Shown in pieces: positions 18,998 to 22,439 of a DNA stretch of 64,000 bases. The DNA is taken from the NCBI GenBank assembly GCA_027490305.1, contig JAIXYI010000023.1, forward strand, positions 1 through 64,000, written 5' to 3'. Position numbers and translations under genes: made by a program. Source of the stretch: Flavobacteriaceae bacterium. Its GTDB lineage: Bacteria > Bacteroidota > Bacteroidia > Flavobacteriales > Flavobacteriaceae. Every line of letters starts with the position of its first letter. Position 1 is the stretch's first letter. Below the pieces are notes generated by a model, which saw only the letters and a list, made by a program, of their open reading frames with translations, was not told the DNA's origin and did not search any database.

Positions 18998-19540
18998 TTA
19001 CGCCTTCTTCTCCAAATCAAAAGAAAGCACAATATTGACTTTATCGGCGATCTTATTCTTGACCACGGCCGGAATCGAAATACCGTAATCCTGCGGTTTG
19101 ACCGAGAACGTGCCTTTGGCCGATAGCTTGTCACCCGAGGGTACAAACGTCATCGTCGTTTTCACATGCTTCGTCACGTTGTGGATGGTCAAATCGCCCT
19201 CCACGTCGCACACCTGCTTCTGCTTGGAGTTTGGGTTGAAACCGCTGACCTTCCCTTTGAAAGTGGCTTTCGGGTATTTGTCCGACTCCATATAATTTTC
19301 ATTGAAGTGCTCTTCCATCAAAGGAACTTTGAAATGGAAGGCCTTCACCAGCACCAGTGACACGAACTCACCTGTCGACGTATCGAACAGGCAGGAAGCC
19401 GTGTTGGTCTTTGCCGCAATCTCTTCAAGAGCCGGCATCGATGCTTCAAAACTGATTTCACCCGAGCGGGTAATCATTTTCTGGGCCGAGGCACCAGCGA
19501 ACGGGAGGGTCGCCAACAAGGCAACAAGCCATTTTTTCAT
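18998..19540 (-). CDS. YceI family protein
   Basis: Signal peptide; NENYMESDKYPKATFKGKVSGF and GDLTIHNVTKHVKTTMTF typical of YceI. Confidence 0.92.
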   Translation of the reverse strand: MKKWLVALLATLPFAGASAQKMITRSGEISFEASMPALEEIAAKTNTASCLFDTSTGEFVSLVLVKAFHFKVPLMEEHFNENYMESDKYPKATFKGKVSGFNPNSKQKQVCDVEGDLTIHNVTKHVKTTMTFVPSGDKLSAKGTFSVKPQDYGISIPAVVKNKIADKVNIVLSFDLEKKA

Positions 19541-19546
19541 AACTAG

Positions 19547-19888
19547 TTAATTAGGGAATCCGTTTTCGGCCCAAGTTGTAACGATATTGATTTTGCTCTG
19601 TGGCATCCGACCTGATTCCGGCATCCCGTCGCCCGATGACGCTGAGATTTCGTCTAGAAGGCCGTTTTCGATTACGGCGTTCCGCACCTGGTCGTAGGTT
19701 TCGAGATACGGCTCCTGATTGCCGTCCACGCTGTGGCAACTGGTGCAGTTTCCGCTCATGATCGGTTTAACATCTGCCGTATAGGTGGGGTCGGTCACCG
19801 TGGCCGACACTTCATCATACGTTCGTGATTCGCATGACACGGCCACAAAGGCCACTGCTGCGATAAGTAAGGTTCCAATCGTCTTCAT
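19547..19888 (-). CDS. monoheme c-type cytochrome-like lipoprotein
   Basis: Start MKTIGTLLIAAVAFVAVSC (lipobox); heme motif CTSCH; MPQSKINIVTTWAENGFPN C-terminus. Confidence 0.85.
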   Translation of the reverse strand: MKTIGTLLIAAVAFVAVSCESRTYDEVSATVTDPTYTADVKPIMSGNCTSCHSVDGNQEPYLETYDQVRNAVIENGLLDEISASSGDGMPESGRMPQSKINIVTTWAENGFPN

Positions 19889-19889
19889 C

Positions 19890-20750
19890 TTAAAATACTC
19901 TATACATGTTAAATCCAAAGAAAATGCCGCCGCCGTCCCAGTTGCCGGCTGCGTTCGTAAAATACGCCACATCGTTCATGGCCTGGCTGTTCGAGAACAG
20001 TAGCTGGAATACGTGTCCGCCGGTTTCGATGTCGAGTCCTACCGTCAACGGGTTCGTATACATATCCATTTCCGGTTGGCCCATCCGCGCCGCATACTCA
20101 AAGTTGATGCTGAGGCGTTTCGAAACTTTATAACGTCCGCCCGCCGCAACCAAAAACTGGTCTTTCTTTTCCGAAAGCGCGTCGTAGAGGTTCTTGTGCA
20201 CGTAAACCGGGTTCAACTCCATTGAAAAAGACTCCGAGAACTTCCGCGAAATCGGCAACTGGGCCGTATACGCCAAACGGTCGGAACCATTCAGGTTAGG
20301 GTATTCGTCCGTACTGAGCTTCGTATTGACGTCCATCGTACCATAGGCCACGATCGTCACCGGAAACCCGTCGTTTTGCTGTGGGAAGAGCCGCAATTTG
20401 GCACTTCCTTCAAATACTTTGTTATACGTGTGACGGGAAAGTCCGAGGGAAAGCCAGTCGGTTACGCCATAAATACCGCCAATCTTGGTGTAGGCGTTAT
20501 CGAGGCCGAAGAAATTATCGAGTCCGTTGGTCAAATCGCCAAATCGATGCGAGACCACAAAATACCATTCGTTTTTTGCAGCCAGTTTGGTCGACTGCAT
20601 GGTCACGACCTGTACACCTTTGAAGGCAGCGGTAGCGATTTCCTTATCGTCCGCTTTTTGGTCAATCTCTTTCATCAGGTCATCGTCCTGGGCCATCGCC
20701 GATCCGGCAAACAGCATCGACAGACCCAGCATCATTGCATAGTGTTTCAT
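19890..20750 (-). CDS. DUF5777-like outer membrane beta-barrel protein
   Basis: Signal peptide MKHYAMMLGLSMLFAGSAMAQ; NEWYFVVSHRFGDLTNGLDNFFGLDNAYTKIGGIYGVTDWLSLGLSR. Confidence 0.8.
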   Translation of the reverse strand: MKHYAMMLGLSMLFAGSAMAQDDDLMKEIDQKADDKEIATAAFKGVQVVTMQSTKLAAKNEWYFVVSHRFGDLTNGLDNFFGLDNAYTKIGGIYGVTDWLSLGLSRHTYNKVFEGSAKLRLFPQQNDGFPVTIVAYGTMDVNTKLSTDEYPNLNGSDRLAYTAQLPISRKFSESFSMELNPVYVHKNLYDALSEKKDQFLVAAGGRYKVSKRLSINFEYAARMGQPEMDMYTNPLTVGLDIETGGHVFQLLFSNSQAMNDVAYFTNAAGNWDGGGIFFGFNMYRVF

Positions 20751-20756
20751 GTTTTA

Positions 20757-21146
20757 TCAGTTGGTTAAAGAGCAATTGTCAAGTTTGATTTCTCCCAGCA
20801 GGTCGTCATAGCCGAGCAGTCGTCCCTTTACGGTGACGGATGTGCCGCCCGCAACGGTTGTAGCCGCGGTGAACGAGCAAATAATCGTACCATCCAACAC
20901 CACCTCTTTGTCTTTGACCGAGGAAACCGGCCCCGTGACTTCGATGGTTTTGTTCAGATACAGCGCCGTCGATTTGGCTGCGTCCGCACTGAATGCGTCC
21001 GTCAACTGCTTTGACGATAGCACAAAGGCCGCGTCTTCGGAGGCGACGTCACGGGCGCCGGCGTGCATGACGTAATAATACCCGCCGCCGACCCCGATTG
21101 CCAGTACTATCAGGGCGATAAGCCCCCATTTGAGTCGTTTCTTCAT
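20757..21146 (-). CDS. OB-fold (tRNA_anti-like) membrane-anchored protein
   Basis: N-terminal TM helix; YLNKTIEVTGPVSSVKDKEVVLDGTIICSF..VTVKGRLLGYDDLLGEIKLDNCSL. Confidence 0.75.
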   Translation of the reverse strand: MKKRLKWGLIALIVLAIGVGGGYYYVMHAGARDVASEDAAFVLSSKQLTDAFSADAAKSTALYLNKTIEVTGPVSSVKDKEVVLDGTIICSFTAATTVAGGTSVTVKGRLLGYDDLLGEIKLDNCSLTN

Positions 21147-21180
21147 ATTATTCTATTACGATTTTTTTTACAGTATGGTT

Positions 21181-21912
21181 TTAATCAGCGGCAATTTCGA
21201 TAAAATAAATACCGTATGCAACACCGGATAAAGATACAGGAATGTCGGCATCATCCGCATAGATGTTAATTTCTTTCCCCAATTGCGCTTCCGTATTGTA
21301 GATGGCAACACGTTCAATGCGTGTGCGGAAGTCATTTTTGATCGACAGTTTTTCCTTACACGGGTTCGGATATACCGATAATTTGTCGTCAAGCGAAGGC
21401 TCGTCGAGTCCGAGTACGGTCGTAAACGTCACCGAACTGCTTCCTTTCGATGCGTGCTCGCTGTTTACATTGGTCGATGGCCCGACAGCCCAAATGATAC
21501 TCATTGAGGTCATCGAGTACGTAAGGGTGTAGTCGTTGGCATCGCCCGTGCTGAACGGACGTGTGGCGACAACCGTGCGGGTGGTGCCGCTCACGGTATT
21601 ACTCACCAGCGTGTAGTTTTGTGTGGCGTCGGTAATCGCTGCGTTGTGGCCACCGGAAAGGTGCTGGTCGAGCAGCGAAGTAGAAAAGGTCATACAGTCG
21701 ATCGGGGTGTTGCTCGACATGGTGGTGGCATGGAGGCCAACCGTAAGCCATTTTGTAGAAGGTCCGGTCATGGTAAACGTGGCCAACGACGTTGCCTGGT
21801 TGAGGTCAATTTTAATGGTCATTGACCCAATGTTCTTTACGCCCGTGGTTTTTACCTGGGCACCGGCTAGGGAAGAAAGCGCCAAAAGCGCACATACAAG
21901 GATTTTTTTCAT
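21181..21912 (-). CDS. secreted DOMON-like protein with truncated T9SS type A sorting domain
   Basis: Signal peptide MKKILVCALLALSSLAGAQ; ..WLTVGLHATTM..NYTLVSNTV..IIWAVGPS..; C-term LSVYPNPCKEKLSIKN..GIYFIEIAAD then TAA. Confidence 0.75.
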   Translation of the reverse strand: MKKILVCALLALSSLAGAQVKTTGVKNIGSMTIKIDLNQATSLATFTMTGPSTKWLTVGLHATTMSSNTPIDCMTFSTSLLDQHLSGGHNAAITDATQNYTLVSNTVSGTTRTVVATRPFSTGDANDYTLTYSMTSMSIIWAVGPSTNVNSEHASKGSSSVTFTTVLGLDEPSLDDKLSVYPNPCKEKLSIKNDFRTRIERVAIYNTEAQLGKEINIYADDADIPVSLSGVAYGIYFIEIAAD

Positions 21913-22439
21913 GATTTCGAGGTGTCAAGTGAGATGATGAGTTCCGTATTTTGGTTGAATCGTGCCATATCAAGCGCCGTTCGGCCCTCGTGGTCTTTTT
22001 GGGTTTTGTCAGCCCCGCTCTTGATAAGCAGGCGGGCGATGTCGTTTTTATTGAAGAAAACAGCATACATCAGCGCGGTTTTGCCGTCGTCATCGGTGGT
22101 GTCGAGGTTGACGTGACGCGCGATCAATGCTTTTACGATTTCGATGTCATTCCCCATGACGGCGGACATCAATGCTGTGCCACGGCCACAATTGTAGTTG
22201 AGATCGGCGGTTTTATCACAAAGGAATAAGGCCACGTCACGGTTTCCACGATAGGCGGCCAGTATCAGCGCGTTGGCTTTCGATTCGTTCAATTGCGAAG
22301 TAACGGTAGGATCCGCCTCATACAGCGCCTTCATTTCGGCCAGTGTGCCTTTGCAGGCCACATCGAAAACCGTAGATTGTTGTGCCCATGCACTAAAAGA
22401 TAGGCAAAGAATTAACAGGAAGGCCGCGCTAGTTTTCAT
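21909..22439 (-). CDS. ankyrin repeat domain-containing protein
   Basis: Signal peptide; KANALILAAYRGNRDVALFLCDK, DDDGKTALMYAVFFNKNDIARLLIKSGAD, DHEGRTALDMARFN. Confidence 0.9.
   Translation of the reverse strand: MKTSAAFLLILCLSFSAWAQQSTVFDVACKGTLAEMKALYEADPTVTSQLNESKANALILAAYRGNRDVALFLCDKTADLNYNCGRGTALMSAVMGNDIEIVKALIARHVNLDTTDDDGKTALMYAVFFNKNDIARLLIKSGADKTQKDHEGRTALDMARFNQNTELIISLDTSKS

What the first reader, a model, noticed from the sequence alone, without database searches (positions are those of the whole stretch)
21151..21183. In-frame TAA removes the last 10 codons of a T9SS type A sorting signal
Seen: the minus-strand gene 21181-21912 ends ..GIYFIEIAAD-TAA; reading on in frame gives AAC CAT ACT GTA AAA AAA ATC GTA ATA GAA TAA = NHTVKKIVIE*, the expected end of a type A CTD (..YPNP...GIYFIEI..xxVKKIVIE). 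Established: extreme C-terminal residues of T9SS CTDs matter for secretion (shown for RgpB of Porphyromonas gingivalis). So this is either a recent nonsense mutation that should trap the protein in the periplasm, a readthrough/recoding site, or a sequencing error. If genuine, loss of export would change the role of this protein from surface to periplasmic.
Basis: partly seen in the sequence, partly recalled or inferred. Interest (0 to 1): 0.7.

Follow-up and report, generated by a model that had tools for sequence, protein, structure and literature searches.

The report
Premature stop cuts secretion signal short
In this Flavobacterium-type genome a stop codon inside the export tag of a predicted surface haem protein removes the tag's last strand, so the protein is probably trapped under the outer membrane; this looks like an ordinary recent loss-of-function mutation or a sequencing error, not a new mechanism.

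Summary
A TAA at 21181-21183 (minus strand) interrupts a gene whose next ten codons (NHTVKKIVIE, then TAA at 21148-21150) complete a type A T9SS sorting domain (CTD). The gene encodes a Sec signal peptide, a DOMON domain and the CTD. All 26 orthologues aligned read through this point with a sense codon and end in the same V-K/R-K-I-type tail; seven were checked and sit in the same six-gene operon. The tail match is not chance (0 of 100,000 shuffles). In this genome it is the only one of 88 CTD hits with an internal stop. AlphaFold2 places the stop in the turn before the last beta strand, so exactly that strand, with its conserved lysines, is lost. In P. gingivalis RgpB, losing two terminal residues already traps the protein in the periplasm. 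The likeliest reading is a recent nonsense mutation that should block export of a predicted b-type cytochrome. An assembly or sequencing error cannot be excluded without reads. Programmed readthrough is unlikely. The CTD upstream of the stop evolves fast on this lineage, while the tail is still conserved, so the stop is recent. Interest is low: a clean natural truncation allele, not a new kind of system.

The parts
21181..21183 (-). in-frame TAA interrupting the CTD, in the turn between its last two strands
21151..21180 (-). ten lost codons, NHTVKKIVIE: final beta strand of the type A CTD, including the conserved K-K
21148..21150 (-). ancestral stop codon, one base before the next gene's ATG (21146-21144)
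   Evidence: the stop and next start are within 25 nt in most close orthologues
21184..21912 (-). truncated gene, 243 aa: signal peptide with Q after the probable cleavage site, DOMON (31-144), CTD from 180
21184..21375 (-). remaining part of the type A CTD (Por_Secre_tail)
20757..21146 (-). downstream operon gene, tRNA_anti-like (OB fold) protein, intact
21909..22439 (-). upstream operon gene, ankyrin-repeat protein, overlapping by 4 nt, intact
18998..20750 (-). rest of the conserved operon: DUF5777 barrel, CxxCH-containing protein (19547-19972), YceI

Best explanation
This is an ordinary T9SS cargo gene (Sec signal peptide, DOMON domain, type A CTD) in which a recent single-codon change to TAA removes the last ten residues. 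Those residues are the terminal beta strand of the CTD, with its conserved lysines. The passenger domain should still be made, exported by Sec and folded. The CTD lacks the strand that completes its sandwich, so the protein should stay in the periplasm or be degraded instead of reaching the surface. Shown here: derived stop, ancestral intact tail, lost strand (predicted structure). Inferred: that the base is real, and the change of location.
For: All 26 orthologues aligned have a sense codon and an intact tail. Six-gene synteny holds in seven genomes. The tail match is non-random. It is the only stop among 88 CTD hits of this genome, and the one stop flagged among listed CTDs of three relatives is a natural gene end. 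SprA is intact, so the T9SS translocon is present. AF2 (mean pLDDT 88.8) puts residues 245-253 as the last strand and the stop at 244 in the turn. The CTD fold matches the F. johnsoniae NucA CTD in the translocon, 8glk_D, TM 0.83 by target. RgpB lacking two residues is retained in the periplasm (PMC11285876). A functionally important lysine near the CTD C-terminus is near invariant (PMC10994853). The CTD branch of this lineage is long (0.762 against 0.108 for DOMON; holding it at 0.16 costs 15.6 log units), consistent with relaxed constraint on the tag.
Against: No read data, so a base-calling or assembly error gives the same picture. The sister sequence L039 also has a fast CTD (0.531 against 0.132) with an intact tail, so CTD acceleration alone does not show loss of function. 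No export experiment exists for this protein. PPAD tolerates loss of two residues though not four (PMC11285876), so tolerance differs between cargoes.
Confidence: 0.55

Rival explanations
1. Sequencing, assembly or strain-mixture error: the organism has a sense codon and an intact, exported protein.
For: The ten codons after the stop still look selected: nonsynonymous difference 0.29 against synonymous 0.69 per site to the nearest orthologue, with synonymous change near saturation. The genome is a draft in 88 contigs. No other CTD is broken.
Against: No other sign of poor consensus: no stops inside 41 ABC-transporter domain hits or 87 other CTD hits, SprA a single frame of 2486 aa, no other broken gene evident in the window by coding score. 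A lone substitution without a frameshift is also what a real mutation gives.
Confidence: 0.33
2. Programmed readthrough or recoding of the TAA makes a mixture of periplasmic and exported protein.
For: The downstream codons are intact and in frame; the next base is A, not the +4U that reduces readthrough (abstract of PMC5289835).
Against: No orthologue has a stop here. No unusual downstream RNA structure (z -0.73). TAA is the normal end of 19 of 28 CTD genes examined in this genome, with no CTD-like extension after it, so no general suppression.
Confidence: 0.04
3. The truncated CTD still works, or the protein now has a useful periplasmic role, and the stop is maintained by selection.
For: DOMON is well conserved (76% to L038) while the CTD is fast-evolving (44%). 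The operon also encodes YceI and a CxxCH-containing protein, which would be at home in the periplasm.
Against: Loss of a whole strand is more severe than deletions known to block export (PMC11285876). A long-maintained stop would have let the tail decay, and it has not.
Confidence: 0.08

Closest known systems
T9SS type A sorting domain (TIGR04183 / PF18962 Por_Secre_tail)
   Same: YPNP start, G-x-Y-F in the penultimate strand, V-K-K-I tail; PF18962 44.4 bits over the full profile when read through
   Different: an in-frame TAA removes the last strand
RgpB C-terminal truncation mutants of P. gingivalis
   Same: loss of extreme C-terminal CTD residues; expected periplasmic retention (PMC11285876, PMC4804311)
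   Different: here a natural allele (or error), ten residues, another genus and cargo, no experiment
Orthologous DOMON-CTD genes of the same genus (e.g. L038 in G309, L039 in G332)
   Same: same operon and domains, 62-64% identity by BLAST
   Different: their CTDs are complete
DOMON b-type cytochromes (cellobiose dehydrogenase cytochrome domain, ethylbenzene dehydrogenase gamma)
   Same: fold match; Met65 and a His near residue 152 in all 36 aligned sequences, as haem ligands would be
   Different: haem binding untested; low sequence identity (12-14%)

Membership tests
T9SS type A cargo (ancestral gene) | N-terminal Sec signal peptide | tested here: inconclusive
   MKKILVCALLALSSLAGA-Q by inspection, helix 2-15 in the model; not run through a signal-peptide predictor
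T9SS type A cargo (ancestral gene) | C-terminal TIGR04183/PF18962 domain over the curated cut-off | tested here: met
   TIGR04183 30.2 bits against cut-off 23 when read through; PF18962 32.5 bits against 27 even truncated
T9SS type A cargo (gene as sequenced) | complete seven-strand CTD reaching the C-terminus with its conserved lysine | tested here: not met
   last strand 245-253 lies after the TAA
T9SS type A cargo (ancestral gene) | host has the T9SS translocon | tested here: met
   SprA 2808.8 bits, one frame
T9SS type A cargo (gene as sequenced) | T9SS-dependent secretion | not testable with these tools
   needs fractionation or a reporter
Recoded (readthrough) gene | stop conserved among orthologues with coding sequence on both sides | tested here: not met
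   sense codon in all 26 orthologues
DOMON family | match to PF03351 over the cut-off | tested here: met
   35.4 bits against 32.7

The most novel reading that the evidence does not exclude
A T9SS cargo cytochrome moved from the cell surface back to the periplasm by a single stop codon and kept there as a functional periplasmic protein.
Probability: 0.06. Interest if true: 0.5.

Novelty: new member of a known kind. Interest (0 to 1): 0.22.

Why it matters
If the base is real, this is a natural counterpart of the laboratory CTD truncations, in the same GTDB genus group as many Flavobacterium-type genomes and close to the F. johnsoniae model, with the break exactly at the last strand. It shows how a surface protein could be relocated by one mutation. 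It also warns annotators that a truncated CTD still passes the Pfam cut-off, so the protein would be wrongly listed as secreted.

Tried and rejected
Chance match of the tail: rejected by shuffles and by all post-stop decapeptides of the window. Orthologues that naturally end at the same point: none found. A general habit of broken CTDs: not seen in this genome, and the one stop flagged in a relative (G332) turned out to be the normal gene end. A recoding structure after the stop: none. Closer relatives: 400 genomes of the genus, then draws around the two nearest relatives, gave nothing above 62-64% (the last repeated much of the same draw). The named-genome scan gave only distant CTD hits. Original RgpB truncation paper not held; its result is cited from PMC11285876 and PMC4804311. 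No paper was found on premature stops in CTDs of Flavobacterium cargo.

Full report
OBSERVATION. The minus-strand gene 21912-21181 ends in TAA at 21183-21181, and the frame continues for ten codons, NHTVKKIVIE, to a second TAA at 21150-21148, one base before the ATG of the next gene. The 243-residue product has a DOMON domain (PF03351, 35.4 bits, cut-off 32.7) and a T9SS CTD (PF18962, 32.5 bits, cut-off 27) that reaches only profile position 64 of 75. Read through the stop, the CTD reaches position 71 of 72 of TIGR04183 and position 75 of 75 of PF18962 with 44.4 bits.

ORTHOLOGUES. Searches of the genus gave orthologues up to 62-64% identical. In seven genomes examined the gene lies in the same run of ankyrin protein, DOMON-CTD, tRNA_anti-like protein, DUF5777 barrel, CxxCH-containing protein and YceI. 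All 26 orthologues aligned carry a sense codon at the position of the TAA (a variable turn position) and end in a V-K/R-K-I-type tail. The stop is therefore derived and the CTD ancestral. The match of the tail to this profile is beyond chance: 0 of 100,000 shuffles, and first of 3828 post-stop decapeptides in the window.

HOW UNUSUAL. Of 88 PF18962 hits in this genome (81 over the cut-off), this is the only one with a stop inside. Among the listed CTDs of three relatives one stop was flagged, and it proved to be the natural end of that gene. SprA, the translocon, is intact, so the machine to export this cargo is present as far as tested.

STRUCTURE. AlphaFold2 on the read-through protein with 35 homologues gives mean pLDDT 88.8 and puts strands at 234-242 and 245-253. 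The stop (residue 244) lies in the turn between them, so the loss is exactly the final strand. The CTD resembles the NucA CTD seen in the F. johnsoniae translocon (8glk_D, TM 0.83 normalised to the target), whose tail aligns with ours. In F. johnsoniae cargo structures an almost invariant, functionally important lysine close to the C-terminus contacts PorV (PMC10994853). The lost stretch holds the conserved K-K; that one of them is that lysine is inferred from the alignment. [quoted passage not shown] PMC4804311). Retention of our protein is inferred from these.

TIMING. Synonymous sites are near saturation between this gene and the nearest orthologue, yet the ten codons after the stop differ less at nonsynonymous (0.29) than at synonymous (0.69) sites (only ten codons, so weak). 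Their profile score is within the orthologues' range, at the low end. So the stop arose late on this branch, or is an error. The CTD before the stop has changed fast: terminal branch 0.762 against 0.108 for DOMON, with the whole-tree ratio 1.5; holding the branch at 0.16 costs 15.6 log-likelihood units (other branches were not re-optimised). A glycine and the YPNP-adjacent serine that are conserved in orthologues are changed. The sister L039 also has a fast CTD with an intact tail, so this is suggestive of relaxed constraint, no more.

REAL OR ERROR. No reads are held and no nearer strain was found. Control domains show no internal stops and no other broken gene stood out in the window, but a single substitution error in a draft of 88 contigs cannot be excluded. 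I put a real nonsense mutation with loss of export at about 0.55 and an error at about 0.33.

READTHROUGH. There is no conserved stop in orthologues, no marked RNA structure downstream, and TAA is the ordinary terminator of most CTD genes here with nothing CTD-like after it.

THE PASSENGER. The DOMON model matches haem-b cytochrome domains (cellobiose dehydrogenase, ethylbenzene dehydrogenase gamma). Met65 and a histidine near residue 152 occur in all 36 aligned sequences. A b-type cytochrome is a reasonable inference and is untested.

VERDICT. A correct and well-read observation, most likely a recent nonsense mutation in one export tag. It is not a new system. The genus is not named by the tools; Flavobacterium or a close relative is inferred from the gene content and (a Flavobacterium stagni contig among the few named hits).

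Noticed in passing
window 18998-22439, minus strand: Conserved operon of ankyrin protein, DOMON-CTD, OB-fold protein, DUF5777 barrel, CxxCH-containing protein and YceI; with a predicted haem-b DOMON it looks like an envelope redox module of unknown function.
   Followed up: partly
L002 / L103 (own genome, contig C34:23365-24060): A paralogue of the DOMON-CTD gene (34-37% identity) with an intact CTD and an ankyrin gene next to it, but without the rest of the operon; it might compensate for the truncated copy.
   Followed up: partly
L034 (CALPVI020000008.1): A metagenome bin titled Actinomyces viscosus carries a T9SS CTD-encoding gene, a Bacteroidota feature; probably a mislabelled or contaminated bin.
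   Followed up: no
window 1-64000: GC content is 0.523, high for a relative of Flavobacterium.
   Followed up: no
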